Below are positions 17,196 through 36,996 of a stretch of DNA of 64,000 nucleotides, in pieces. The position numbers and the translations under genes are program-made. This stretch comes from Planctomycetota bacterium (GTDB taxonomy: Bacteria > Planctomycetota > PLA2 > JAEUHO01), in assembly GCA_029259775.1 (NCBI GenBank), contig JAJDEN010000027.1, positions 1-64,000 of the forward strand, given 5' to 3'. Positions within the stretch are counted from its first letter, which is position 1; each line of letters opens with the position of its first letter. Under the pieces are notes generated by a model that did no database searches, had not been told where the DNA came from, and was given only the letters and a program-made list of their open reading frames with translations.

Positions 17196-17435
17196 CCACC
17201 AAGGCGTGCCCGTTGGCTTTCCGCGGCCATGAGCCGACCGGCGCGATGCCGCATGGGGCAGGCGTAAGTGCGTGCCCCAAAAGCGCCTACGTCCGCGCAC
17301 CCGCTCCTCTCTTGGGGGCATCCACACGCCTCGGCGGTTTCGGGCACACTGGAGGTGCCGTCTCGGGTCCGATGGGCCCTGCTCGCCCCGCAGCGAAGGA
17401 CGCCCAGCACGCGACCGATGGCACCGGAGATCCCC

Positions 17436-18896
17436 ATGACGACACTCTTTCGCCCGACCTACCGGAGCAAGAACGGCCAGCAGCGAGAGTCCAGCCGCTG
17501 GTGGGTGCGCTACTCGCTGGGCGGCAAGACCCTCCGCGTAGGCACAGGCCTCACCGACAAGCGTGCCGCGGAGCTTCGCGCCGGGGAAATCGTGCGCCGC
17601 GCCGAGATGCAGGCGGCGGGCATCTCCGACCCCTTCGAGCAACACGTCACCGTACCGTTGCGAGAGCACGTGGACGACTTCCTCGCCGAGCTGGGTTCGC
17701 GCGACCTGAACGAGAAGTACGTCGCCGACCGCGTCACGTGCCTGCGCGAGTTCGAGGAGGCGAGTGCGATCAGCAGGCTCTCGGATCTGACGCCGGAGGT
17801 GGTGACGCGCTGGATGGGCCAGCTGCGTGGCCGAAAGCTCTCGGCACGTAGCGTGAACAGGCGGCTTGCCGCCGTGCGTCAGTTGGGCCGTTGGCTCAGG
17901 CGCGCAAGGCGCCTGGCGTTTGATCCGTTCGACGGCGTCAAGCCGCTCAACGACAAGACCGATCGCCGCCACGTCCGCCGGGCGCTGACGCCGGCCGAGA
18001 TCACGCGCCTTCTCGATGCGGCCCGAGAGCGGCCCCTGGAGGCAGCGCGGGCCGCACGGGCGAGGGCAGAGGTGAGCGAGCTCGAGGTTAAGAGGCTCGA
18101 GAGGATCGGGCAGACGAGGGCCTTGATCTACGCGCTGGCGCTGGGAACAGGGCTTCGCCGTGGCGAGTTGCAGCGGCTTCGCCACGCGGACCTCGACCTT
18201 GAGGGCGGCGTGCTCACGGTGCCCGCCGTCTCGGCCAAGGCCAGGTGCGAGCAGCGCGTGCCACTCAGGAAGGACCTCTGCGAGAGGATCCGGACGTTCA
18301 TGGCGCGTTCGGGCCTTAGGGAGAGCGGCTCCCCGGTGTTCCCGACGGGTTCCTTCCCAGCGATCCGCACCTTCTGGAAGGATCTGGAGTGCGCCGACAT
18401 TCCGCGCCGCGACGAGGACGGACGGGTCGTCGACTTTCACGCGCTGAGGACGACGTTCGTTTCCGGCCTTGCGGCGGCGGGCGTCCATCCGCGTGTGGCG
18501 CAAGCGCTCGCGCGTCACTCGAGCGTCGACCTCACGATGTCGGCGTACATGGACCTGAGCCTGCTTGACCTTCGCGGTGCTGTCGAAGAGCTACCGCTCG
18601 GCGACGCGCAACGCGCATCCGAGAGGCACATGGCCGAGGAGCAAAGCGCAGATGCACTTTGCCGCGGGCTTTGCCGCTCGACGCCCACGTCGGCGCATTT
18701 CACTGCACTTACGCGCACACGAGAAGCCGGTCAGCAAAGTGCGGATGGCGACCACAGAAACGACGCAAGTCGCGGTCACACCAAGGGGTTAGATGGTGGA
18801 GCGCCCGATCGGGTTCGAACCGACGACATTCAGCTTGGGAAGCTGATGCTCTACCAACTGAGCTACGGGCGCGCTCCGGAAGCGTCCGGAAGGTAG
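17436..18896 (+). CDS. Tyrosine recombinase / integrase 2, running through tRNA-Gly
   Basis: 486 residues from ATG 17436 (GGAG seven bases upstream); earlier in-frame ATGs lack a site. The catalytic domain is complete: Arg in GTGLRRGELQRL, Lys in SAKARCEQRV, HALRTTF, ARHSSVDLT, and nucleophile Tyr in SAYMDLSL. After the usual C-terminus an extra tail of roughly 90 residues ends in VRTDDIQLGKLMLYQLSYGR, which is the antisense translation of tRNA-Gly. The gene's 3' end is therefore the integration site, with the recombinase next to the tRNA 3' end. The natural stop before integration was probably elsewhere. Confidence 0.88.
   Translation: MTTLFRPTYRSKNGQQRESSRWWVRYSLGGKTLRVGTGLTDKRAAELRAGEIVRRAEMQAAGISDPFEQHVTVPLREHVDDFLAELGSRDLNEKYVADRVTCLREFEEASAISRLSDLTPEVVTRWMGQLRGRKLSARSVNRRLAAVRQLGRWLRRARRLAFDPFDGVKPLNDKTDRRHVRRALTPAEITRLLDAARERPLEAARAARARAEVSELEVKRLERIGQTRALIYALALGTGLRRGELQRLRHADLDLEGGVLTVPAVSAKARCEQRVPLRKDLCERIRTFMARSGLRESGSPVFPTGSFPAIRTFWKDLECADIPRRDEDGRVVDFHALRTTFVSGLAAAGVHPRVAQALARHSSVDLTMSAYMDLSLLDLRGAVEELPLGDAQRASERHMAEEQSADALCRGLCRSTPTSAHFTALTRTREAGQQSADGDHRNDASRGHTKGLDGGAPDRVRTDDIQLGKLMLYQLSYGRAPEASGR
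18641..18747. repeat. Candidate arm-type direct repeats near the attachment site
   Basis: GCAAAGCGCAGATG (18641-18654) recurs as GCAAAGTGCGGATG (18734-18747), identical at 12 of 14 positions. An inverted GCAAAGTGC lies at 18654-18662. They are 50-160 bases from the tRNA 3' end, where integrase arm sites would be expected. Confidence 0.35.
18797..18872 (-). tRNA. tRNA-Gly (anticodon CCC)
   Basis: The full cloverleaf can be drawn on the minus strand: acceptor GCGCCCG/CGGGCGC, D-stem GCTC/GAGC, anticodon stem TCAGC/GCTGA with loop TTCCCAA (anticodon CCC), T-stem GTCGG/CCGAT with loop TTCGAAC, and encoded CCA. Its 3' end points at the integrase gene, so it is the likely integration target of the island. 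Confidence 0.95.
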
Positions 18897-18980: not shown

Positions 18981-21020
18981 ATGAGCATTCGCTGGAAGCT
19001 GATCACCGGCGCGCTGTCGTTCCTGCTGCTGTTCGTCGCCGTTTTCGTGGCCACCACCTTCGTTACCTCGAGCCAGAAGGCCGACGGCCTGGTCATCAAC
19101 CTGGCCGGCCAGCAGCGCACCACCAGCGAGAAGATGACCAAGGAGATCCTCGCCTACGCCGAGGACCCGAGTGAGGAGAACTGGGAGGCCTTCGGACGCT
19201 CCAAGGCGCTCTTCGCCGCGACCCACAAGGCACTCACACGAGGGGGCGCCGCACCCAAGATGATGGGCGACGTCGTCGAGACCGACGAGGTACCCGCCGC
19301 CAACGACGACACCATCAAGACGAAGCTCACGGAGGTCCAAGCGACCTTCGACGCCTTCGTGCAGGCGTCCGACAAGCTCGACGCCGAGGCGCGCGCCGCC
19401 AAGGACGAAGGCGACATGGTCGTCGCGCAAGCGCCCGAGCTGCTCGCCAAGCTAAGCGCCGTGCTGAAGCGTGCACAAGCGGTAGCCAGCAACGAAATGC
19501 TCGACGCCGAGGCGCGCGCCGAGTGGACGCAGATCATCAACCTCGCCTCGCGCCAGAGCCTCATGGCGCAGAAACTCGGCACGCTCGCGCTCACCTACCT
19601 GCGCGCGCCCACCGAGGATGGCAAGCAGGCCCTGGAGGTCGCCCTCGAGATCTTCGATGGCACGCACAGTTCGCTGACGTCCGGTGGGACCGTCCTGCTC
19701 GACGTCGACGACGAGAACAGCGGCGTCATGATGGCCGCCGCCCCCAACGTGCGCGTGCAGCAGGCGCTCGCCGAAGCCGGCGAGGCGTGGGACGTGTTCC
19801 GCCGTGCGCTGCGCGGGCTCGAGCTCGCCGCCGTCGCGCGCGCCGGCGCGGTCAAGGCAGCCCTCCGCCACTCCCCCACCATCCTCGCTGCGATGACCGT
19901 CGTCGTGAACCGTGCGCAGGCGCTGTCGGAGAAGAAGGTCACGACGATCCAGACCGTGCAGATCGGCGCGCTCGCGCTGGGCATCCTGCTCGTGATCTTC
20001 GCGTCGCTGATGGGCAACAGGATCGGCACCAACGTGATCCGGGCCGTAGACGCCGCCGAGACGATCGCGGACGGAGATCTCACCCACCGCAGCGAGACGA
20101 TGTCGAAGGACGAGACCGGCCGCCTCCTTGGATCGCTCAACGACATGACCCACCAGCTCAGCGAGCTCGTGCAGCAAGTGCAGCTCTCGGGCGTGAGCGT
20201 GGGCAGCTCGTCGACGCAGATCGCCGCCAGCGCCAAGCGCCAGGAGTCCGCCGTCAGCGACCTCTCGTCCACAGCGACCCAGATCGCAGCGACGTCGACG
20301 GAGATCTCGGCCACGGCCGACGAGTTGCTCGCCACGATGAACGCCGTCGGCGAGGTCTCCGAAGGCACGTCGCGCGACGCGGCCAACAGCAAGCGCGGCC
20401 TGGAGGACATGGAGCGCACCATGTCGCAGATGGTCGAGAGCACCGAAGCGGTGCAGGAGCGCCTCTCGGCGATCAGCGAGAAGACCGCGAAGATCTCCAG
20501 CGTCGTGACGACGATCATGAAGATCGCCCAGCAGACGAACCTCATCTCGCTCAACGCCGCCATCGAAGCGGAAAATGCCGGCGAGCTCGGGCTGGGCTTC
20601 GCCGTCGTCGCCAAGGAAGTGCGGCGCCTGGCCGACCAGACGTCGAAAGCCTCCAAGGGCATCGAGCAGATGGTGCAGGAGATGCAATCCGCCGTGGCCA
20701 CCGCCGTCATGGGCATGGATGGGTTCTCGACCGACATCCGCAGCGGCTCCGCGTCCGTGAACACCGTCGCGACCCGGCTGGGCAAGATCATCGAACAGGT
20801 CGAGGATCTCGTTCCTCAGTTCGATTCCGTGCGCGAGGGCATGTCGGCCCAGGCGCAGGGTGCGGGTCAGATCGCCGACGGCGTGCGCCAGATCGTCGAC
20901 TCGTCGGAGGAGACCGCCCTCTCGGTCCGACAGACGAACGCCGCGATCATGCAACTGGCCCGCGCTTCCGAGGAGCTCCAGAGCGGTGTCTCACGCTTCC
21001 GCGTGAACGGCGACGCGTGA
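18981..21020 (+). CDS. Methyl-accepting chemotaxis protein with PilJ-type sensor
   Basis: 679 residues; GGAGG lies eight bases upstream of the ATG. One membrane helix (about 8-27) precedes an extracytoplasmic sensor of PilJ/nitrate-sensor type with two related segments, [18 protein letters not shown] (about 38) and [16 protein letters not shown] (about 180). A second helix lies at about 330-350, then a HAMP region (about 350-400). The signalling hairpin near residue 525 carries [19 protein letters not shown]. It should pass ligand state to a CheA-CheW array. It is convergent with the Wsp-like operon, a natural partner, although it could serve another array. Confidence 0.88.
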
Positions 21021-21054: not shown

Positions 21055-22263
21055 CTAGGCGAAGTCGATCTGCACGAGCGATACGTCATCGTCGAACTCA
21101 GCGGCCGCGCGCTCGCGCTTGGCTGTCTCCATCATCGCATCGAGCGTGCGGGCCGATGCGTCCTGGAACACGTCGATGAACTCCTCGTGCGTGCGTACGC
21201 GGCCATCGGCGCCCCGGATCTCGTAGACCCCATCGCTGTAGATGAACATGCGGGCACCGGGCGCGACTTTGCGCAGGCAGGTCTGGTAGTCGAGGTCCGG
21301 CAGCACGCCGGGCATGGGCCCCCCGGACTCGAGCAGGGTGGGTTCTCCGGCGACGGCCGGGTCGTCGAAGTAGACGGCGGCCGGATGGCCCGCCCCGGCC
21401 CACGCCAGCTCCCGCGTCGAGCGTTTGAAGACGCCGTACCAGATCGTGAAGAACTTCCCGTCGTGATCCTGCGTGCGGAACGTGTTGTTGAGCTGGCTCA
21501 CGACGCCGCCCGGATTGCGGAAGTCGGTGTTGGGCAGCGTGCGCGAGCGCAGGGTGGTGAGCACCGACACGCCCAACAGAGCCGAGCCGACACCATGTCC
21601 GCTCACGTCCAGCAGGTACATGGCGAAGTGGTCGTCGTCCAGCCAGTGGTAGCCGAACGCATCACCGCCCAGCGAGGCCGACGGAATGAAGCGCCAGTCC
21701 GCCAGCAAGCCGTCCGTCACAGGCTCGGGCAGCAGCGACTGCACGTACCGGGCGGCCTGCTCGAGGTCCTCGGCGATCGCCTTCTCCTTCTTGGCCAGCT
21801 CGCGGTAGGCCTCGTCGCGCTGCAGGCGTGAGACGTAACCGTCGGAGTGATGCCGGATGCGCGCGACGAGCTCGACGGGGTCGGGCAGCTTCACGAGGTA
21901 GTCGTTGGCGCCGTTCGCGAAGGCCTCGGCCTTCGTCGCGGGCTCTTCCTTCGTGGAGAGCACGATCAGCGGGATCCGGCGCGTCGTTTCTTCGGCGCGG
22001 AAGCGCTTCACGAGCTCGAGGCCGTCCAACTGCGGCATGACCAGGTCCGAGAGGATGACTGTCGTCTCCTCGGCGGCGGCCAGCTCGATGGCTTGCGTCG
22101 GATCGTTGCAGTAGCGGAACTTGATGTCCGTATGCGCGGCCAGCATGCGTCGCACGGCCTCGCCGATGATGGGCTGGTCGTCCACGAGCAGGACGCTGAC
22201 GACGTGGTCAGGCAGCCGCTCGGCGATCGCTTCGGGAGTGTCGGCCGTAATCACGTCGGACAT
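21055..22263 (-). CDS. WspR-like receiver fused to PP2C/SpoIIE phosphatase
   Basis: 402 residues from ATG 22263 (GGGAGG upstream), four bases after cheB, last gene of the operon. Residues 20-140 are a receiver with acidic pair D28/D29, phospho-acceptor D73 (VILSDLVMP) and K125. Its sequence (LVDDQPIIGEAVRRML, LSTKEEP, GANDYLVKLPD, then VARIRHHS and LQRDEAYREL) follows WspR receivers closely. After a helical linker (150-180), residues 190-400 form a PP2C-type Ser/Thr phosphatase: GGDAFG, DVSGHGVGSALLG, YSDGVYE and FDDDVSLVQI give the metal-binding Asp residues. No GGDEF domain is present. The likely output is dephosphorylation of an anti-sigma-antagonist type protein. Confidence 0.92.
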   Translation of the reverse strand: MSDVITADTPEAIAERLPDHVVSVLLVDDQPIIGEAVRRMLAAHTDIKFRYCNDPTQAIELAAAEETTVILSDLVMPQLDGLELVKRFRAEETTRRIPLIVLSTKEEPATKAEAFANGANDYLVKLPDPVELVARIRHHSDGYVSRLQRDEAYRELAKKEKAIAEDLEQAARYVQSLLPEPVTDGLLADWRFIPSASLGGDAFGYHWLDDDHFAMYLLDVSGHGVGSALLGVSVLTTLRSRTLPNTDFRNPGGVVSQLNNTFRTQDHDGKFFTIWYGVFKRSTRELAWAGAGHPAAVYFDDPAVAGEPTLLESGGPMPGVLPDLDYQTCLRKVAPGARMFIYSDGVYEIRGADGRVRTHEEFIDVFQDASARTLDAMMETAKRERAAAEFDDDVSLVQIDFA

Positions 22264-22267
22264 GGTC

Positions 22268-23335
22268 TCAGGAACCTCCCGCGTCGCTCGAGGATTCGGC
22301 GGCGGCCGCGAGCCTCTTCCATGCGCGTTCGATGCGAGCGCCCATCTGGTCGATCGGCACGACGGCGGAAGCCGCGCCGCACTCGGCCGCCGCCTTCGGC
22401 ATGCCGTAGACCACGGACGTGGCCTCGTCCTGGGCAAGCGTGCCCCAGCCCGCGTCCTTGAGCTTGCCGAGGCCCTTCGCGCCGTCCTGCCCCATGCCGG
22501 TCAAGAGCGCCGCGGCGCCCGGCGTCGGCCAGCTGCGCTTGAGACTCTGGAAGAACACGTCCACACTGGGGCGGTAGACGAGGTCCTTGGGGTCCGGCTC
22601 GTAGCGCATGCGTCGCGAGAGGCCCATGACCAGGTGGTCGCTGCTCGAAGCGACATGGATCGTGCCGGCCTCGGGCGCGTCGCCTGCCTGAATGGGCTGG
22701 GCGGGCCAGCCCGTCTGGCGGCTCAACCACTCCACCAAGCCCGGCACGAACGCCTCGTCCAGATGCTGGACGACGACGACGGCGGGACGGAACGCCTCGC
22801 TGAAGCCTGTGATCGTGTCGACGATCGCCTGCGGACCGCCGGTGGAGGCGCCGATGACGACGAGTCGCTCCGCGGGCATCGACGGCGGCGGGAACGAGCC
22901 GGAGGAACTGCGCTTGCGCAGCGCCTTGAGCTCCGGCACCGGCTGCGTCAGCCGCCGGATCGTGTTCATCTTGCGTAGGACCGGCTCGTGGTCCTTGAGC
23001 GAGCCGTCCGCATTGAAGGTCGGACCGCTGACCGCGTCCAGCGCGCCGGCACCAAGCGCGTGGAACACCTTCGAGAGGTTGCCTTCGACGGTCGCCGTCA
23101 CAACGAGGATCGGACACGGCGAGTTGCGCATGATGCGACGGGTGGCTTCCACGCCGTCCAGGTTCGGCATGATGAGATCCATGAGGATGAGGTCCGGAAC
23201 ATCCGCCGCGCACATCGTTACGGCCTGCTCGCCGTCTTCGGCGATCCACGCGACCTCCCCGTCGTCGGCCGTCAGGACGAGCCTGCTCAGCGCAAGCTGC
23301 GCGAGCTTGAGGTCGTTGACGATGGCGATCCTCAC
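22268..23335 (-). CDS. cheB: CheB/WspF-type protein-glutamate methylesterase
   Basis: 355 residues. The N-terminal receiver has phospho-acceptor D53 (LILMDLIMP); the usual first acidic pair is Asn-Asp (IAIVNDLKLA), as in several WspF-like proteins. The C-terminal esterase domain has catalytic Ser164 (IGASTGGPQA), His191 (VVQHLDE) and Asp284 (GMGQDGA). It removes methyl groups from receptor glutamates and resets the array. Its start overlaps the cheA stop by four bases (ATGA). In Wsp systems loss of this protein locks the pathway on. Confidence 0.93.
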   Translation of the reverse strand: MRIAIVNDLKLAQLALSRLVLTADDGEVAWIAEDGEQAVTMCAADVPDLILMDLIMPNLDGVEATRRIMRNSPCPILVVTATVEGNLSKVFHALGAGALDAVSGPTFNADGSLKDHEPVLRKMNTIRRLTQPVPELKALRKRSSSGSFPPPSMPAERLVVIGASTGGPQAIVDTITGFSEAFRPAVVVVQHLDEAFVPGLVEWLSRQTGWPAQPIQAGDAPEAGTIHVASSSDHLVMGLSRRMRYEPDPKDLVYRPSVDVFFQSLKRSWPTPGAAALLTGMGQDGAKGLGKLKDAGWGTLAQDEATSVVYGMPKAAAECGAASAVVPIDQMGARIERAWKRLAAAAESSSDAGGS

Positions 23336-25641
23336 GCGTCCCTCCGCTCGAGGGGGCCGCCGATCAGATCGGCGACCTCGCGCACGAGGGTCTCGTCGTG
23401 GAAGCTGCTCTTCGTGAGGTAGGCGTTGGCGCCCGCCTCCAGGCCGCGCATGCGGTCCTCTTCGGACTCCTTGTAGGAGACGATCATCACGGGGATCGCG
23501 CGCAGCCGCGCGTCGTCCCGGATGCGGCGGACGAGCTCGATGCCGTCCATGCGCGGCATGTCCACGTCACTCACGACGAGGTCGTAGTCCTGCGCCCGCA
23601 CGGTGTTCCACGCGTCAGCCCCGTCCACACACACATCGACCTCGTAGCCACGGTTGGCGAGCAGCTTGCGCTCGACTTCACGCACGGTGATGGAGTCGTC
23701 GACCACGAGGATCCGCTTGCGTGCCCGGCCTACGTCCGACCGCAGCTGGCTCGTTGCTCGGATGGTGCGCAGACGTCCCGCGTGCAGCAACTGATCCACG
23801 GAGTGGACGAGGTCTTGCACATCAACGATCACAAGGGGATTGCCTTCGGTGTCGAGCGCCACGGCGGAGACGTTGGCCACGGCGCCAAGCCGCCGGTCGA
23901 GCGTGCGGACGACGAGACTCTGCTCGCCCAGGTAGCGATCCACGGCCAGCCCGTACACCGCGTCGCCCGATTTCACGATCACGACGTACAGGACATCCGT
24001 AGGCTTCTGGCGAGCGCGCAGGCCCAGCACGTCGGCGGCAGGCACGAGCCCGATGACCCGGCCGTCGTGCTCGAAGCTCTGGCGGTTCTCGATCGACTGG
24101 ACGTCGGCCGCCTCGACGCGTACGAGCGACTCGATCTGTGTGAGCGGGAACGCGAAGGGCTCGCCGGCGATCTGGAGGATGGCGACGCGGATCACGGAGC
24201 GCGTGATCGGCAGGATCATCGTGAACCGCAGGCCCGCGGGGCGACGGCGGGCGCGAACCGTTCCGCCCGCCTCACGCACCATGCTGTGGACGACATCCAG
24301 GCCGACGCCGCGTCCTGAGATCTCGGTCACCGCCTGCTTCGTCGAGAAGCCCGGCAGGAAGAGGAACTCCATCAGCTCCGCCTCGGACAGGTCCTCTGCA
24401 ATGGCCGTAGTGATGAGGCCGCGGTCGACGATCCGCGTACGCAAGGCGTCCAGATCGATGCCGCGGCCGTCGTCCAGCACGTTGATCTCGAGCATGCCCG
24501 CGTGATGGCGCGCGACCAGTCGCAGCGAGCCCGTCGGCGGCTTGCCCGCAGCGTCTCGCGTCGCCTCGTCCTCGAGACCGTGATCGAGCGCGTTGCGCAA
24601 CATGTGGTTCAGCGGCGCTTCGAGGCGTTCGAGAATGTCGCGATCGACGGGCACGTCCCGCCCCTCGATCTCGAACTTCACCTTCTTGCCAAGATCCCGG
24701 GCGAGATCGCGCACCATGCGCGGGAAGGCCGTGACGCCCTCCGCGAAGGGCCGCATGCGACTCGTCAGCACCTGGCGGTACATGCGGCCGGCGAGGTCCG
24801 CGCTGTGACGCGACGCCTCGTCGAAGGTGGCGACGCGCTCCGCGATCAGTGCGAGCACCTCCTCGGTCTCGCGGCGGAGCGCCTCGAACGGATCGGGCTC
24901 AGGCACCTCGAAGCCATCGCGCTTGAGCCGGTCGCGTGTGCCCATGAGGCCCAAGCTGAGGCGCTCCACCCCACGCCGCAGACCGTCGAGCGCGTCGGTG
25001 TGCTCCGCCAGCCGGCGCGCCTGCACGACGGACTCGCCCGCGTAGCTGAGCATGCGCGTGAAGACCTCGGGGTCGACACGCACGGCCGAGGCGGCGCTGC
25101 GCAGCGTCGCCCCGGTGCTCGCCAGCGGCGCAGGCTCGGGTTCGGACGGGGGGTCTTGTTCGGGCTTGGGAGACGCCTCCGGATCGGACTGGGCAGCGGC
25201 CGCAGGAGCGGCCTCCTCGAGCTCGCCCTGCTTCGCCTGCTCGAGCCGGACGACGATGTCCGCCAGCACCCCCTTGTGCTCGGCAAAGAACGCATCGGTC
25301 TGGCCGTCCTGCAGGTCCCCGGTCTTGCGGAGCACGTCGGTGCCCGCGAGCAGCGCGTCGACCGCGCCGCCGCCAAGCACGACGCCGCCCTCCTGGGCGA
25401 GCACGAGCAGGTCCTCCATCGCGTGCGCCAGGGTGACGACCGCATCCAGGCCGACGATGCGCGCGGCGCCTTTCAGCGAGTGCGCTGCGCGCATGAGAGG
25501 TTCGATGAGGCCGAGATCCTCCGGCGCACTGTCGAGTTCGACGAGGCCCGCCTCGAGCGTGGCGGCATGCGTCTCCACCTCGGCCTGGAACAGGTCGAGC
25601 ATCGAGAATCCACTGAGGTCTTCGGGCGGCGGCACGCTCAT
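23332..25641 (-). CDS. cheA: CheA/WspE-type hybrid histidine kinase with receiver
   Basis: 769 residues. Order: HPt with phospho-His54 (RAAHSLKGAARIVG); a Pro/Glu-rich linker (about 140-175) and no obvious P2 domain; dimerisation helices; HATPase with N-box HMLRNALDHGLED and G boxes (ISGRGVGLDVV); CheW-like adaptor (about 470-610); C-terminal receiver (640-769) with D692 (LVVSDVDMPRMDG). CheA-REC hybrids of this kind phosphorylate both their own receiver and the separate output regulator. Stop and start overlaps on both sides (four bases each) tie it to the CheW and cheB genes. Confidence 0.94.
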   Translation of the reverse strand: MSVPPPEDLSGFSMLDLFQAEVETHAATLEAGLVELDSAPEDLGLIEPLMRAAHSLKGAARIVGLDAVVTLAHAMEDLLVLAQEGGVVLGGGAVDALLAGTDVLRKTGDLQDGQTDAFFAEHKGVLADIVVRLEQAKQGELEEAAPAAAAQSDPEASPKPEQDPPSEPEPAPLASTGATLRSAASAVRVDPEVFTRMLSYAGESVVQARRLAEHTDALDGLRRGVERLSLGLMGTRDRLKRDGFEVPEPDPFEALRRETEEVLALIAERVATFDEASRHSADLAGRMYRQVLTSRMRPFAEGVTAFPRMVRDLARDLGKKVKFEIEGRDVPVDRDILERLEAPLNHMLRNALDHGLEDEATRDAAGKPPTGSLRLVARHHAGMLEINVLDDGRGIDLDALRTRIVDRGLITTAIAEDLSEAELMEFLFLPGFSTKQAVTEISGRGVGLDVVHSMVREAGGTVRARRRPAGLRFTMILPITRSVIRVAILQIAGEPFAFPLTQIESLVRVEAADVQSIENRQSFEHDGRVIGLVPAADVLGLRARQKPTDVLYVVIVKSGDAVYGLAVDRYLGEQSLVVRTLDRRLGAVANVSAVALDTEGNPLVIVDVQDLVHSVDQLLHAGRLRTIRATSQLRSDVGRARKRILVVDDSITVREVERKLLANRGYEVDVCVDGADAWNTVRAQDYDLVVSDVDMPRMDGIELVRRIRDDARLRAIPVMIVSYKESEEDRMRGLEAGANAYLTKSSFHDETLVREVADLIGGPLERRDA

Positions 25642-26243
25642 TGGAGGCTCCGCGCCAGGCCCTCGAAGAGCCGCTTCGGGTCGATGCGGCCTGCGGGGCC
25701 CTCGGGCGTCTGGACGACCCCGTCCGTGAAGTGGATGGCGCTCTTGGTGACCGTGTCCTGCGCGCTCTTGAGTTGCGAGGCTTCGAAGCGCTCGAAGTCG
25801 AGGACGGCGTCGACAAGCAGGGCCCAGGTCTCGCCGTCCTGCTGCACGACGAGCATGCGGCGCTCGTCCTCCGCGCTCTCGCCCCCCTCCGGTTCGGCCT
25901 CCAGGCTGAACAGGGCGCGCAGGCTGGCGCAGAGGTGGATCTCGCCCCGCAGGCTCACGAGGCCGCGCAGCACGTCGCCCGTACGGCCCGGGACGGACCG
26001 CACCGGGGCGCGCGGGTGCACCTCGACGACGGTCTCGGTCGGCATGGCGAAGAGCTCGTCACCGAGGCGGAAGAGACCCACGGAGAAGCGCGTGCCGCGC
26101 TCTTCCTTGTCCATCGTGATCTTGAGCGTCTGCCGCCACGCCTCGAGATAGGCCTCCGGCGGCTCACGACCGAGCAGGCGCGCCGCCGCATCGGCGAGAC
26201 GGCCGCCCCCGCGCTCCGGGTTGGGCGCATCGCGCTCAGGCAT
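25638..26243 (-). CDS. cheW: CheW-type adaptor (WspD position)
   Basis: 201 residues. An N-terminal extension (ADAAARLLGREPPEAYLEAW) precedes a CheW SH3-like fold (about 55-170) with LRGLVSLRGEIHLCASLRAL. The extension resembles that of WspD. CheW proteins tie receptors to CheA. The start overlaps the cheR 3' end by eight bases. The second adaptor in the operon (27468-27965) lacks this extension, and the two probably hold different positions in the array, as in Wsp systems. Confidence 0.88.
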   Translation of the reverse strand: MPERDAPNPERGGGRLADAAARLLGREPPEAYLEAWRQTLKITMDKEERGTRFSVGLFRLGDELFAMPTETVVEVHPRAPVRSVPGRTGDVLRGLVSLRGEIHLCASLRALFSLEAEPEGGESAEDERRMLVVQQDGETWALLVDAVLDFERFEASQLKSAQDTVTKSAIHFTDGVVQTPEGPAGRIDPKRLFEGLARSLQ

Positions 26244-27471
26244 CGTCGCCCCCCTTCACCCGGGCGGCCTTCTCGCGCAAGCGACGCGCCCGGCCCCGGT
26301 CGCCCCGCGTCTCAGCAAGCAACGCAAGTTGCATGAGCGACGGGTAGTGGTTTGGATCCAGGTAGAGCGCGCGGCGCAGCGCCGCTTCGCTCTCGTCGTC
26401 GCGGCCTCGGGCACTCTCCACGAGCGCCAGCAGATGGAAGTGATCCGCCGACACGGGGCCTTCGGCGATGCCGTCCACGAGGGCCCGTCGGGCCTGGTCG
26501 AGATCCCCGGCATCGGCCAGGCCGGCGGCGCGCCGCAGCACGTCACCCGGATCTGCCACCGGCGGGGGCGGCACGGGCCGCTTCATCGCGGGACGCGGCG
26601 TGGGCGTGCGCGGCGGCGCCGCTCGCGGCGTCCGTGAGTCAAGCCCGCGCACGGCCGGCCTCTCGGCCACACCCTCCCGTTGCGCGAGATAACGACAAGC
26701 GAATGCCTCGGGCGGTGCCGCCAGCACGAGCCCCGCATCGCGCGCCGCGGCGACCTCGGCGTGGCCGACGAACAGCAGCCCACCCGGCCGCAGCATGCTG
26801 CGCATGCGCCTGAGCAGGCGCTCGCGCGCCTCCGGCACGAGGTAGATCATCAGGTTTCGGCAGAAGAGCGCGTCGTAGGGCGGCTCCCCGAGGCCGAAGA
26901 CGGCATCCAATACGTTGGCGTGGCGGTAGGCGATCCGGTCGAGGACCTCGGCCCGCAGTTGGTACGTCTCCCCGTGGGGCTCGAACCAGCGTTCGCGCAC
27001 GGAGGCGGGCAGGCGCCGCACGTTGCGGCGGCGGTAGCGGCCGCGCTTGGCATAGTCGATGGCACGCTCGCTGACGTCGCTCGCCTCGATTGTGACGCGG
27101 TCCATGTCGACGCCCGCTTCGAGCAGGGACATCACCAAGGACGCCGGCTCCTCCCCCGTGGACGTGGCGAGGCAGTGGATGCGGAACGTGTGTGTCGCAT
27201 GCGCCGTCAGGCGGCGGAGCGCCTCGCTCACCAGGAGATCGAAGGACGCCGGATACCGGAAGAAGCTCGTCTCGTGCACCATCACGGCCATCGCGAGGCG
27301 TTCGAACTCTGCACGGTCTCGAGCTACGTGGTCGGCGTACGCATCGAGGTCCGTGATCTCCATCGCCTTCATGCGTCGGCGCACGGTCGCCTGCAAGCCG
27401 ATGCGGCTCAGCGCGGCGGGATCGAGCCCAAGCGAGGTCGTCAGCTGATCCTGGATGCGACCGATGCTCAT
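26236..27471 (-). CDS. cheR: CheR/WspC-type methyltransferase with TPR tail
   Basis: 411 residues. Residues 1-270 are the CheR fold: an N-terminal helical domain, then the SAM-binding domain with HCLATSTGEEPASLVMSLLE and YDALFCRNLMIYLVPEAR. A low-complexity Pro/Arg linker (about 280-315) leads to about 90 residues of TPR helices (RRALYLDPNHYPSLMQLALL). This CheR-TPR arrangement is that of WspC. It methylates receptor glutamates using S-adenosylmethionine. It overlaps both neighbours, so translation is coupled. Confidence 0.93.
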   Translation of the reverse strand: MSIGRIQDQLTTSLGLDPAALSRIGLQATVRRRMKAMEITDLDAYADHVARDRAEFERLAMAVMVHETSFFRYPASFDLLVSEALRRLTAHATHTFRIHCLATSTGEEPASLVMSLLEAGVDMDRVTIEASDVSERAIDYAKRGRYRRRNVRRLPASVRERWFEPHGETYQLRAEVLDRIAYRHANVLDAVFGLGEPPYDALFCRNLMIYLVPEARERLLRRMRSMLRPGGLLFVGHAEVAAARDAGLVLAAPPEAFACRYLAQREGVAERPAVRGLDSRTPRAAPPRTPTPRPAMKRPVPPPPVADPGDVLRRAAGLADAGDLDQARRALVDGIAEGPVSADHFHLLALVESARGRDDESEAALRRALYLDPNHYPSLMQLALLAETRGDRGRARRLREKAARVKGGDDA

Positions 27472-27965
27472 CCGGCCTCCGGCGTGGCGCGTTGCCGCAC
27501 GGAAGCGAGCACGTCGGCCGGAATCAGCTCCCTGACCTCGACGAGTTGCACGAGGTCATCACCGTCGCGCAGGATGCGGCCGAGGCCGCTGAAGCCCGCC
27601 GTCTCCGGCCCGGGATGGCTGCCCGGTGCGTCAGGATCGAACTCTGCTACGCGCGTGACGTTCTCCGCGAGGATGCCCACGTAGTCGGCATCGGCGCCGC
27701 CCTGGAACCAGCGTCCGCTGGCTCCACCCCCACCGAGATCACAGACGATGATGCGGTTGGCGAGCTTGACGGGACACGCGCCGCGGCCGAACAGCCGGCA
27801 GAGGTCGAGAATCGGCACGACGGTGCCGCGGTAGTCGATCACGCCCGTCACGGCCTCGTGCGTACCCGGGACGCGTCGCGGCTCGATGCCGGGGATCACC
27901 ATCACGATCGCCGTCGAATCGACGGCGAAGCGCTCGGAGCCGACGTAGAAAACGACCGCCTGCAT
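27468..27965 (-). CDS. cheW: CheW-type adaptor (WspB position)
   Basis: 165 residues consisting only of the CheW fold: FYVGSERFAVDSTAIVMVIP, then HEAVTGVIDYRGTVVPILDL and a C-terminal VQLVEVRELIP. It is second in the operon, five bases after the receptor gene and overlapping cheR by four bases, matching the place of WspB. It links the receptor to CheA. Confidence 0.9.
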   Translation of the reverse strand: MQAVVFYVGSERFAVDSTAIVMVIPGIEPRRVPGTHEAVTGVIDYRGTVVPILDLCRLFGRGACPVKLANRIIVCDLGGGGASGRWFQGGADADYVGILAENVTRVAEFDPDAPGSHPGPETAGFSGLGRILRDGDDLVQLVEVRELIPADVLASVRQRATPEAG

Positions 27966-27970
27966 CGTGC

Positions 27971-29158
27971 TCAGTCTTCCAGCCGGAACTTCGCGATCTC
28001 GTCGTTCAAGGTGTTGGCCGCGCCGCGCAACTCCTCCGCGACCGACGTCACCTCACGTAGCGACGCCACCGTCTGCTGCACGGTCTCGTTGAGCGAGCGC
28101 ATCGCGTCGTTGATGGCGTCCGCGCCGTGGGCCTGGCTCTTCATGCCTTCCCCGACCGAGTCGAAGCGACGCGTGAGGCGTTCGACTTCGGCGATGATCG
28201 AGCTCAGCTGCGTGCCGACCTCCCCCACCACGCGGACGCTGCGCCGCACGTGGTCGGCAAACTTGTCCATCTCCATGACGCCGGCGGAGACCGACGTCTG
28301 CATCTCGCCGACCGTGCCCTCGATGTCCAGCGTCGCGGCGGCGGTCTGATCGGCCAACCGGCGGATCTCCTGGGCCACGACGAGGAAACCACGCCCGTAC
28401 TCGCCGGCCTTCTCGGCCTCGATGGCCGCGTTGACCGACAGCAGGTTCGTCTGGTCGGCGACCTTGGTAATGGTCGTGACGACCGAAGTGATGTCGCCCG
28501 CCTTGTCGTTGATGACCGAGAGCTTTCCGGAGATTGACGAGCTGCTGTCGCTCAGCTGCGACATCGTCGACTCCATCTTCTCAAGACGATCGCGGCCGGT
28601 ATCGGCGAGCGAAGCAGAGTTGTGCGCGATCTCCTGCACGTCATCGATCGTGCGCATGAGCTCGGCGCCCGTGGCGGAGATCTGCTGGACCGACGCGGCA
28701 ATCTGGTTCGTGGAGGAACCGAACGCGCTGACGGTGGCCTCCTGCTCGCGACTGGTGGCTGCCAGCTCGGTCGAGGTCGAGGTCAGCTGGATGCTGGACT
28801 TGCGCACGGCGGTGACCAGGCCGGCGATCTTGTCGACGAAGGCATTGAAGCTGCCGGCCAGTTCCCCCACCTCGCTCTCGCCGACGATGTCCAAGCGGGC
28901 GCAGAGGTCGCCGTCGGACTCGGCGAGGTCGCGCAGCCGCTCTTGGAGGCGGCTCATGCTTGCGAGGAGCGGCCGGACGAGGACGAACTGACCGACGACG
29001 AGAATCATGGCGATCAAGGCGGCGCCGATCCAGAGCGCGGTGGGCTTCTCCAGCGGCAGGATCCCCGTCGCGGCCCCCAGCAGCACCAGCAGGCCGACGA
29101 ACAGGATCAGATGGATGATCCGGAAGCTCTGCCGGAAGCCCATGTCGTGGATGTTCAT
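27971..29158 (-). CDS. Methyl-accepting chemotaxis protein without periplasmic sensor (WspA position)
   Basis: 395 residues, first gene of the operon, with GAGGGAG upstream. Two closely spaced membrane helices (about 17-34 and 40-62) leave almost no extracytoplasmic domain. WspA carries a large periplasmic 4HB domain, so the input differs: membrane state or the HAMP region may be sensed. HAMP (about 62-115) is followed by the MCP hairpin with the tip TNLLSVNAAIEAEKAGEYG (about residue 240). Signals pass to the CheW/CheA proteins encoded just downstream. Confidence 0.9.
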   Translation of the reverse strand: MNIHDMGFRQSFRIIHLILFVGLLVLLGAATGILPLEKPTALWIGAALIAMILVVGQFVLVRPLLASMSRLQERLRDLAESDGDLCARLDIVGESEVGELAGSFNAFVDKIAGLVTAVRKSSIQLTSTSTELAATSREQEATVSAFGSSTNQIAASVQQISATGAELMRTIDDVQEIAHNSASLADTGRDRLEKMESTMSQLSDSSSSISGKLSVINDKAGDITSVVTTITKVADQTNLLSVNAAIEAEKAGEYGRGFLVVAQEIRRLADQTAAATLDIEGTVGEMQTSVSAGVMEMDKFADHVRRSVRVVGEVGTQLSSIIAEVERLTRRFDSVGEGMKSQAHGADAINDAMRSLNETVQQTVASLREVTSVAEELRGAANTLNDEIAKFRLED

Positions 29159-35993: not shown

Positions 35994-36773
35994 CTAGACG
36001 AAGAGCTCCGCCTTCTTGTTGCTGTGCAGCTCGCGCAGGCGACGGATCACCTTGCTGTGGATCTGGCAGACGCGGCTCTCCGTGAGGCGCAGCATGCCGG
36101 CGATCTCGCGCATCGAGAGACCCTCGTAGTAGTAGTACTGAATGACGATCTGTTCCTTCTCGTTCAGGCTCTTGAAGAAGAGAGCGCGAACGTCGCGGAG
36201 CTGCTGCGACTCGCGGGGCGCGTCGCCCGCCTTCTTGTCGCCGATCAGATCGATCATGCGGCCGCCGGCCTCGCTGTCGTCGCCACCCGCGTCATCGGTG
36301 AGCGAGAGGACGGACGTCGGCGTCGCCTCCTTGCGCAGCTTCTCGTACTCCTCCATCGACATCTCGAAGGCGTCGGCCATCTCGATGTCGGTCGGCTCGC
36401 GCCCGAGGTCGGCGTAGAGCCGGCGGAGGGTCTTGTCGACCATGTTCGTGCGCAGACGGACCAGGCGCGGCACCCAGTCGTTCGTGCGGAGGTTGTCGAG
36501 GATCGCACCGCGGATACGCGCCGTGCAGTAGGTCTTGAACTGGAAGCCACGCGAGCGGTCGAAGCGGTCGATCGCCTCGATGAGGCCAAACGTGCCCATG
36601 CTGACCAGGTCGTCGGTCTCGACGCTCGCCGGCAGCGTGCTGGCCATGCGCTCGGCGAGGTACTTCACCAGGGGGAAGTACGCTTCGACGATCCTCGCCT
36701 TGTCGTCAGAGGAGCCTGTCTTCTCGTAGGCGTCCCAGAGGTGCTTGAAGTCGGCGTCGCGAAGTTTGCGCAT
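35994..36773 (-). CDS. fliA: FliA/WhiG-family sigma factor
   Basis: 259 residues; GGAG lies nine bases upstream. Region 2 (about 30-110) contains VKYLAERMASTLPASVETDD, then GLIEAIDRFDRSRGFQFKTY and ARIRGAILDNLRTNDWVPRL, the hallmark of the FliA/SigD/WhiG group. Region 3 is at about 115-180 and region 4 at about 200-250 with the HTH LSMREIAGMLRLTESRVCQI. It would direct RNA polymerase to flagellar-type promoters. No anti-sigma or flagellar gene is adjacent. Its leader carries a c-di-GMP-I riboswitch, so expression is likely set by c-di-GMP. Confidence 0.93.
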   Translation of the reverse strand: MRKLRDADFKHLWDAYEKTGSSDDKARIVEAYFPLVKYLAERMASTLPASVETDDLVSMGTFGLIEAIDRFDRSRGFQFKTYCTARIRGAILDNLRTNDWVPRLVRLRTNMVDKTLRRLYADLGREPTDIEMADAFEMSMEEYEKLRKEATPTSVLSLTDDAGGDDSEAGGRMIDLIGDKKAGDAPRESQQLRDVRALFFKSLNEKEQIVIQYYYYEGLSMREIAGMLRLTESRVCQIHSKVIRRLRELHSNKKAELFV

Positions 36774-36854
36774 CTGAAGTATCTCCGTCTCTCATACGTC
36801 CGTCGCCGGACGTGCCCTGTGATCCCGTACCTGTGGAGTCGGGGGCGAGACGGT

Positions 36855-36870
36855 GACGCGCGTTCGCGTC
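36855..36870 (-). promoter_or_regulatory. Possible expression-platform hairpin of the riboswitch
   Basis: GACGCG arms (36855-36860 and 36865-36870) form a short stem 18 bases after the aptamer and about 80 bases before the sigma-gene start. No T-run follows. Whether it competes with the aptamer or with the ribosome-binding site is not clear. Confidence 0.35.
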
Positions 36871-36887
36871 CCCATGCTGCTGCCCAT

Positions 36888-36996
36888 GGCTTGGTAGCTG
36901 GCTGCCATTGAAGCCACCTCGGGGAATGAGGTGGCTTGGAAGGCCCTGTAGCTTTGCGCCGCCGGCTTTCGCCGGGTTTGCCCGTTCATCCAAGGT
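36888..36996 (-). ncRNA. Cyclic di-GMP-I (GEMM) riboswitch aptamer
   Basis: Read on the minus strand, the aptamer contains CGGGCAAACC, a CCGGC-GAAA-GCCGG tetraloop hairpin, GGCGCAAAGC, a long hairpin with AAGCCACCTC/GAGGTGGCTT arms, and ATGGCAGCCAGCTACC. These match the conserved blocks of the GEMM-I class in order and spacing. The outer stem CTTGG/CCAAG pairs 36990-36994 with 36890-36894. It lies 115 bases upstream of the sigma-gene start in the same orientation. It should bind c-di-GMP and control that gene; the direction of control cannot be read. Confidence 0.9.

What the first reader, a model, noticed from the sequence alone, without database searches (positions are those of the whole stretch)
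21055..29158. Wsp-type chemosensory operon with phosphatase output instead of diguanylate cyclase
The minus-strand operon keeps the Wsp order exactly: MCP, CheW, CheR-TPR, CheW, CheA-REC, CheB, response regulator. The final regulator has a receiver that resembles WspR so closely (YLVKLPD, then VARIRHHS and LQRDEAY) that common descent is the simplest view. A PP2C/SpoIIE phosphatase replaces GGDEF. The pathway would thus act by partner switching on a sigma/anti-sigma system rather than by making c-di-GMP. REC-PP2C regulators such as HsbR exist in other pathways, but I do not know one described as the output of a Wsp array.
Basis: partly seen in the sequence, partly recalled or inferred. Interest (0 to 1): 0.88.

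Follow-up and report, generated by a model that had tools for sequence, protein, structure and literature searches.

The report
Wsp chemosensory array with phosphatase output
The only chemosensory array found in this planctomycete-type genome has the gene order of the surface-sensing Wsp system, but its final regulator carries the Wsp receiver on a serine-phosphatase domain instead of a c-di-GMP-making enzyme, so it would likely work a protein partner switch; the same regulator family occurs under record names of about ten bacterial phyla.

Summary
Seven tightly coupled minus-strand genes (21055-29158) have the Wsp order and end in REC-PP2C. Its receiver is 59-60% identical to Pseudomonas WspR, but 32-33% to its own CheA receiver and to non-Wsp REC-PP2C. 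It is the only WspR-type receiver, and its CheA the only CheA, found in the genome (92.5% complete). Of 73 homologous loci, 45 hold a Wsp-class CheA and 5 more a CheB; of the other 23, 16 genomes have such a CheA elsewhere and 7 show none. The same receiver class also carries GGDEF, class III cyclase, HD-GYP or histidine-kinase outputs; three loci hold two outputs. Stalk lengths between receiver and enzyme differ only by sevens in the 310 PP2C and cyclase proteins measured, as a coiled-coil switch predicts. Partner switching rests on linkage: an RsbW-like and/or STAS gene lies in 11 of 73 PP2C loci and 0 of 23 other-output loci (Fisher 0.04). None is linked here and no biochemistry was done. 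Prior art: a 2012 census tabulated phosphatase and cyclase regulators in CheR-TPR clusters, and Shewanella Che1-CrsR is a chemosensory cluster with a partner switch. Which output is ancestral is unresolved. New variant of a known kind.

The parts
27971..29158 (-). MCP, 395 aa, two predicted TM helices with a very short loop (my reading), HAMP, signalling domain (WspA position)
   Evidence: Pfam MCPsignal 7.4e-34, HAMP 4e-08; lacks the ~150-residue periplasmic part that five relatives have
27468..27965 (-). CheW (WspB position)
   Evidence: Pfam CheW 5.8e-21
26236..27471 (-). CheR methyltransferase with C-terminal TPR-like region (WspC position)
   Evidence: Pfam CheR 9.3e-40; weak TPR-family matches 314-401
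25638..26243 (-). CheW (WspD position)
   Evidence: Pfam CheW 3.1e-22
23332..25641 (-). CheA with Hpt, HATPase, CheW and C-terminal receiver (WspE position); only CheA found in G000
   Evidence: Pfam; Hpt AHSLKG motif from residue 53 and N/G boxes present; the only match beyond the receiver in the genome
22268..23335 (-). CheB receiver-methylesterase (WspF position)
   Evidence: Pfam CheB 3.1e-50; motifs GASTGG, VVQHLD, GMGQDG
21055..22263 (-). REC-PP2C response regulator, 402 aa, start corrected to ATG 22263 (WspR position)
21850..22200 (-). WspR-type receiver, residues 22-138, phosphoacceptor D73 at 22045-22047
   Evidence: 59-60% identity to WspR over 146 residues; D73 in 83 of 83
21736..21879 (-). 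48-residue stalk helix, residues 129-176
   Evidence: AlphaFold2 model, mean pLDDT 90.2, pTM 0.70; stalk length varies by sevens across the family
21061..21708 (-). PP2C (SpoIIE-type) domain, residues 186-401, metal-site aspartates D201, D219, D344, D393 (assignment to metal sites recalled)
   Evidence: Pfam SpoIIE 7.9e-37; D201 and D219 in 83 of 83, D344 82 of 83, D393 81 of 83, the rest gaps
18981..21020 (+). second MCP with PilJ-type N-terminus, convergent with the operon; possible second input
   Evidence: Pfam PilJ 2e-13, MCPsignal 3.1e-30; a convergent MCP beside REC-PP2C in 5 of 9 family loci

Best explanation
This is a Wsp-class chemosensory operon whose last gene joins a WspR-type receiver to a SpoIIE-type PP2C domain, so the array is predicted to switch on a serine phosphatase that would likely reset a STAS/RsbW partner switch rather than make c-di-GMP. 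Shown by sequence: the operon and its order; receiver orthology to WspR; intact phosphoacceptor and PP2C aspartates; no second CheA, no GGDEF protein with a WspR receiver and no flagellin found in the genome; conservation in the family and across phyla. Inferred: (1) CheA (P-His) phosphorylates D73; (2) phosphorylation orders the stalk into a coiled coil and dimerises the PP2C domains; (3) the phosphatase removes phosphate from the serine of a STAS protein; (4) the freed STAS protein binds an RsbW-like kinase/anti-sigma and releases its client, likely a sigma factor. Partner genes are unlinked here; four small STAS genes of G000 that carry serine at the usual site are candidates.
For: Receiver class: 471 receivers score above 100 bits against the receiver profile, 424 of them above 200; all other detected receivers score 65 or less apart from one at 90 (L085). 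Receiver tree: PP2C, GGDEF, cyclase, HD-GYP and HK receivers form one clade against 7 CheA-REC and other REC rows, 99/96. Core: window CheA scores 590-646 bits against the CheA of seven GGDEF Wsp operons (L187-L193) but 220-247 against three CheA of another class; Wsp cores are one clade, support 100. Linkage: REC-PP2C lies directly 3' of CheB in 38 of 73 loci, 5' of the operon in 7, elsewhere in the locus in 5; 45 of 73 loci hold a Wsp-class CheA, 5 more only CheB; of the other 23, 16 genomes have a Wsp-class CheA elsewhere. Family: found in 10 of 12 genomes of the window's family. Partner genes: RsbW-like ATPase in 10 of 73 and STAS in 5 of 73 PP2C loci, 11 of 73 with either, against 0 of 23 other-output loci (Fisher 0.04; 0.2 to 1.8 RsbW genes expected for assumed densities of 1-8 per 5 Mb). 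They are the co-oriented next gene in L028, L031, L067, L070, L072, L089 and lie just upstream of the MCP gene in L086, L090; all 11 loci Pfam-confirmed. Further receivers: 37 of 48 REC-PP2C genomes show no non-PP2C protein with a WspR-type receiver at E 1e-38 (at most 37 candidates scored per genome). Stalk: PP2C 166 of 192 at one length and 26 exactly seven shorter; cyclases 106, 11 and 1 of 118 measured (122 tried) at 0, -7, -14. Structure: REC, long helix, PP2C, with RssB, WspR, SiaA and an RsbU-RsbW protein among the nearest solved folds. The general coiled-coil mechanism was proposed for PPM phosphatases in PMC12143880 (passages).
Against: No STAS or stand-alone RsbW-like gene lies in the window, on its contig or in the nine family loci, and the real partner is not identified. 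Linkage exists in only 11 of 73 loci; in L035 and L054 the genes are convergent, in L093 not adjacent; the contrast with controls is weak (Fisher 0.04; controls total 0.38 Mb against 1.15 Mb). No phosphotransfer or phosphatase assay was run. 7 of 23 genomes with unlinked REC-PP2C show no Wsp-class CheA, and L032, L033, L068 have CheB but no CheA in 2.8-7.7 kb upstream. G000 is 92.5% complete, so 'only' is provisional. PP2C domains can act on other phosphoproteins.
Confidence: 0.72

Rival explanations
1. The phosphatase acts on targets of Hanks-type serine/threonine kinases, not on a STAS protein; the array would then reverse kinase signalling.
For: In L026 the REC-PP2C gene lies beside very large genes, one of 2766 aa whose start reads like a protein kinase (my reading, no Pfam scan). 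No STAS is linked in the window.
Against: RsbW and/or STAS genes recur near REC-PP2C in 11 of 73 loci. Whether protein kinases recur there as often was not examined.
Confidence: 0.14
2. c-di-GMP is still the end of the pathway: the partner switch controls a diguanylate cyclase, as HsbA controls HsbD in Pseudomonas.
For: G000 has 7 GGDEF matches and a conserved c-di-GMP riboswitch on a sigma gene in the same window; HsbA-HsbD precedent (PMC6482189 passages).
Against: No GGDEF gene in the operon or with a WspR receiver found; no HsbD-like link was looked for.
Confidence: 0.08
3. CheA feeds mainly another, unlinked response regulator and REC-PP2C is a side branch.
For: G000 has many other receivers; 23 of 73 REC-PP2C genes have no CheA or CheB in the fetched flank.
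Against: Position as the last, 4-nt-spaced gene of the operon; receiver orthology to WspR, the known Wsp output; CheB next to REC-PP2C in 9 of 9 family loci.
Confidence: 0.05
4. The PP2C domain is a non-catalytic adaptor, as in E. coli RssB.
For: RssB proteins are among the nearest folds.
Against: The four PP2C aspartates are conserved in 81-83 of 83 sequences.
Confidence: 0.02

Closest known systems
Wsp system (WspABCDEFR, Pseudomonas), ACF class of chemosensory systems
   Same: Gene order, domain layout, WspR-type receiver (59-60% identity), CheA without a Pfam P3 hit
   Different: Output is PP2C, not GGDEF; the MCP lacks a periplasmic domain in this genome
WspH systems of Burkholderia (hybrid kinase in place of WspR; PMC8552884, passages read)
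   Same: Another output on a Wsp core; precedent for output exchange
   Different: Output is a histidine kinase, gene 5' of the operon; reported there for Burkholderia, whereas the PP2C form spans phyla
Shewanella Che1 with CrsR/CrsA (PMC9855816, passages read)
   Same: Chemosensory cluster holding a regulator/antagonist partner switch (RpoS)
   Different: F7-type array with CheD and CheY; CrsR has a third, kinase/anti-sigma domain (PMC6482189); by the layout described, not a Wsp operon
HsbR/HsbA of Pseudomonas (PMC6482189, passages read)
   Same: Receiver-controlled PP2C acting on a STAS protein
   Different: REC-PP2C-kinase, fed by HptB, not by a CheA array
REC-PP2C and REC-cyclase regulators counted in cheR-TPR clusters (PMC3447774; abstract, section 9 and passages read)
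   Same: Same architecture class already tabulated in 2012
   Different: No tree, receiver orthology, partner linkage or stalk analysis in the parts I read; its Table S2 was not read

Membership tests
Wsp/ACF chemosensory system | Order MCP-CheW-CheR-CheW-CheA/REC-CheB-regulator | tested here: met
   same as annotated L188 and L193
Wsp/ACF chemosensory system | CheA and CheB group with those of GGDEF Wsp operons against other CheA | tested here: met
   (outgroup of only three CheA)
Wsp/ACF chemosensory system | CheR fused to TPR | tested here: inconclusive
   no Pfam TPR; weak NCBIfam TPR-family matches at 314-401
Wsp/ACF chemosensory system | Regulator with WspR-type receiver | tested here: met
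WspR (diguanylate cyclase) | GGDEF output domain | tested here: not met
   SpoIIE/PP2C instead
SpoIIE/RsbU-type PP2C phosphatase | PP2C fold and metal-site aspartates | tested here: met
SpoIIE/RsbU-type PP2C phosphatase | Dephosphorylates a STAS phosphoserine | not testable with these tools
   needs an assay
HsbR/CrsR | REC-PP2C-kinase/anti-sigma three-domain protein | tested here: not met
   402 aa, no HATPase domain called
Partner-switching module | STAS antagonist and RsbW-like kinase with the phosphatase | tested here: inconclusive
   absent from the window, present elsewhere in the genome; in 11 of 73 homologous loci

The most novel reading that the evidence does not exclude
The Wsp array is a universal signalling chassis with a plug-in output. 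One orthologous receiver and coiled-coil stalk, kept in heptad register, drives PP2C, diguanylate cyclase, class III cyclase, HD-GYP or histidine-kinase domains, and two different outputs can be wired to one array. The PP2C form is an old, phylum-crossing lineage in which surface/envelope sensing runs a partner switch on gene expression, and in this flagellin-less family it is the sole chemosensory pathway.
Probability: 0.45. Interest if true: 0.82.

Novelty: new variant of a known kind. Interest (0 to 1): 0.64.

Why it matters
Wsp is the textbook case of a chemosensory array that makes c-di-GMP. Here the same array, with an orthologous receiver, ends in a serine phosphatase in many phyla, and in others in cyclases or kinases. 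That gives a natural domain-swap series in which the kinase, receiver and stalk stay constant while the enzyme changes. It makes two open questions directly testable: how one receiver can regulate unrelated catalytic domains (heptad-register stalk, as proposed for PPM phosphatases in PMC12143880), and how chemosensory arrays connect to partner switches outside Shewanella. Loci such as L035 (Desulfoferrobacter suflitae strain DRH4) hold array, REC-PP2C, RsbW-like and STAS genes side by side.

Tried and rejected
Rejected: chance likeness of the receiver (wide score gap to other receivers); descent from ordinary REC-PP2C (L201, L202 receivers 33% identical and outside the clade); a GGDEF WspR elsewhere in the genome (none found); flagellar chemotaxis as the array's purpose (one CheA; no flagellin match). 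The FliA/WhiG sigma of the window as the sure target was not adopted: the riboswitch-sigma pair also occurs in five order-level relatives without a full WspR-type REC-PP2C match.

Led nowhere: no relative in viral contigs; the four own STAS proteins are about equally distant (18-29% in local alignments of 50 residues or more) from the five linked STAS proteins, so no partner could be singled out; of the 8 own STAS matches, my script read the wrong strand for L105, L106, L108 and L112 and these were not resolved.

Limits: the receiver tree has only 146 columns and 31 open forks, so direction and number of output swaps stay unsettled (PP2C label 9 changes, at least 4 forced by starred branches; CheA+CheB tree 4). 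Identity of the window receiver ranges 46-60% to 17 GGDEF rows, 38-64% to 20 cyclase rows, 47-82% to 75 PP2C rows and 31-58% to 3 HD-GYP rows. Rows dropped: near-duplicate PP2C receivers before the tree; loci without CheA above 400 and CheB above 150 bits before the core tree; L195, L196, L198, L199 and P0254 had no stalk length on the tree. In one search the GGDEF regex failed for 119 of 125, so the GGDEF figure is (123 of 125 at one length); 4 of 122 cyclases were not measured. First stalk regexes left 19 and 11 PP2C rows unmatched and gave two odd values (57, 65), which the better anchor resolved to heptad values.
Full report
1. What is there. The window is G000:C20:1-64000 of a 5.09 Mb, 66-contig genome, 92.5% complete. 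A genome of the same family (G010, locus L153) is the record titled Planctomycetota (L025; identical rows). The operon 21055-29158 is intact, with neighbouring genes overlapping by 4-8 nt or 4-5 nt apart. Domain calls. The last gene most likely starts at ATG 22263. CheA has Hpt, HATPase, CheW and receiver; Pfam gives no P3 (H-kinase_dim) hit, which fits what PMC8552884 says of WspE (passages).

2. Is the regulator a WspR relative? A profile of 37 REC-PP2C proteins finds WspR structures first (3bre 5.5e-71, 3i5a 3.7e-70) through residues 15-165, that is receiver plus the start of the stalk; PleD, the next receiver-only match, is at about 3e-21. The window receiver is 59% and 60% identical to those two over 146 residues, 58-62% to receivers fused to cyclase, HK or HD-GYP (L101, L038, L205, L206), but 32-33% to its own CheA receiver and to non-Wsp REC-PP2C (L201, L202); full ranges are in Tried and rejected. 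In the 125-row tree all WspR-type receivers form one clade against 7 outgroup rows (99/96) and the window sits with nine family members (96/83); the base is unresolved.

3. Is the core Wsp? In a CheA+CheB tree of 64 rows (63 loci with both genes above threshold plus the window) one side of a branch (92) holds 9 GGDEF, 2 GGDEF+PP2C and 2 PP2C systems; the other holds 47 PP2C, 2 cyclase, 1 cyclase+PP2C and 1 HK. The window is in a planctomycete PP2C clade (99); output labels need 6 changes (SH-aLRT only). With three CheA of another class as outgroup the Wsp core is one clade (100), with poor inner support. So PP2C-Wsp is not a recent local swap, but which output is older is open.

4. How widespread? 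Of these 38 lie directly 3' of CheB, 7 directly 5' of a Wsp operon (Gemmataceae-type), 5 elsewhere in the locus, 23 have no Wsp genes in the flank, several flanks being short. A Wsp-class CheA is in 45 of 73 loci, CheB alone in 5 (two of these at a contig end), and MCP, CheW, CheR, CheA and CheB are all seen in 30. The 3'-of-CheB layout is found under record names of ten phyla ('Deltaproteobacteria' names are loosely placed). Of the 23, 16 have a Wsp-class CheA of at least 350 bits elsewhere in the genome; 7 do not. In 392 planctomycete genomes 20 have a REC-PP2C of at least 350 bits that covers the receiver, 10 of them among the 12 genomes of the window's family (only 4 candidates scored per genome). 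The nine fetched family loci all have CheB next to REC-PP2C.

5. Other outputs and double outputs. WspR-type receivers also carry GGDEF (L026, L098, L103 by Pfam; L028 by sequence; L187-L194 by match to the L098 protein), class III cyclase (L038, L099, L101, L102, L104; L195-L199), HD-GYP (L200, L206; L085 with a 90-bit receiver) and histidine kinase (L205). L026 and L028 have a GGDEF operon with a divergent REC-PP2C; L038 has CheB, REC-cyclase, REC-PP2C in a row. In 48 REC-PP2C genomes searched, 11 have a further non-PP2C protein with a WspR-type receiver and 37 none at E 1e-38. Of the 11, 2 are GGDEF, 6 cyclase, 1 HD-GYP, 1 has no recognised output (L059) and 1 is cut by a contig end (L081).

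6. The stalk. Measured from the conserved AR-I-R-Y-H motif to the enzyme's first motif, 192 distinct REC-PP2C proteins have 42 (166) or 35 (26) residues; 118 of 122 REC-cyclases have 40 (106), 33 (11) or 26 (1), and 4 could not be measured; no off-heptad value among those measured. GGDEF: 123 of 125 at one length, mostly close relatives. On the tree this needs at least 3 changes for PP2C and 2 for cyclases, all in multiples of seven. The model shows one 48-residue helix between the domains. This is what a coiled-coil stalk that must keep register predicts, and fits the general mechanism proposed in PMC12143880 (passages). The heptad steps are observed; the mechanism remains inferred.

7. The partner switch. 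Profiles built from Pfam-confirmed members and own-genome STAS/RsbW proteins find stand-alone RsbW-like ATPases in 10 of 73 and STAS proteins in 5 of 73 PP2C loci (11 with either), and none in 23 loci with other outputs (Fisher one-sided 0.04; the 23 loci total 0.38 Mb against 1.15 Mb, and at least L195-L200 of them hold no Wsp operon in the stretch). L031 reads CheB, REC-PP2C, RsbW, STAS; L086 and L090 have RsbW just before the MCP gene. A further REC-PP2C locus, L204, also has an RsbW-like gene. All five linked STAS proteins carry serine in an SSAG or DSSG motif. In G000, STAS and RsbW-like genes exist but elsewhere: 8 STAS matches, of which L107, L109, L110, L111 are small proteins with serine at that site (the other four not resolved); 3 strong RsbW-like matches, one fused to a receiver. 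The window itself has no STAS and no RsbW-like ORF; the ATPase profile meets only CheA. The partner in this genome is therefore a prediction.

8. Compared with what is known. Two facts lower the novelty. The 2012 census of cheR-TPR clusters lists PP2C and mononucleotidyl cyclase among fused outputs (PMC3447774). Shewanella Che1 contains CrsR/CrsA, a partner switch on RpoS (PMC9855816); the primary paper was not held. My searches for the specific pairing (open-licence library only) showed, in listings and the passages I opened, no study of a Wsp array with a PP2C output. What is added here: receiver orthology, spread and depth, double outputs, partner-gene linkage, and heptad steps in the stalk.

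9. Verdict. Real, well conserved, new variant of a known kind. The class (Wsp core, PP2C output) is near certain; the partner-switch action is likely (about 0.72); the exact client is unknown.

Noticed in passing
35994-36992 (-): A c-di-GMP-I riboswitch (36890-36992) lies directly upstream of a FliA/WhiG-family sigma factor gene (35994-36773). A homologous sigma gene follows the riboswitch in 8 of 8 riboswitch-bearing genomes of the window's family and at 5 riboswitches of order-level relatives; 6 of the 19 riboswitches found have none. No flagellin was found in G000.
   Followed up: partly
27971-29158: The operon's MCP has two TM helices joined by a very short loop and lacks the roughly 150-residue periplasmic domain present in five family relatives (ORFs of 545-597 aa): an apparent loss of the external sensor.
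   Followed up: partly
18981-21020: A PilJ-type MCP converges on the operon; a convergent MCP stands there in 5 of 9 family loci, so it may be a second receptor of the array.
   Followed up: partly
L195-L199: Planctomycetes with an unlinked REC-PP2C carry WspR-type receivers fused to a class III cyclase (368-408 aa) with a weak HNOBA match in 4 of 5, with no Wsp operon in the fetched stretch.
   Followed up: no
L065 and L074: Nearly identical Wsp-PP2C operons in a Desulfobulbaceae MAG and an Ignavibacteria MAG: recent transfer or binning error.
   Followed up: no
L201:4705-9359 and L202:5832-10819: In Methylococcales a large ORF with a CheA-like receiver match overlaps by 4 nt a REC-PP2C whose PP2C resembles the Wsp type but whose receiver does not (33%): a possible source of the PP2C domain.
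   Followed up: partly
L049, L051, L053, L054, L056, L057, L097: In Gemmataceae-type loci REC-PP2C is 5' of the Wsp operon, like the 5' regulator of Burkholderia WspH systems.
   Followed up: no
17268-18896 (+) and tRNA-Gly 18797-18872 (-): A tyrosine recombinase gene whose end overlaps a tRNA-Gly gene lies just beside the array locus: a possible integration site.
   Followed up: no
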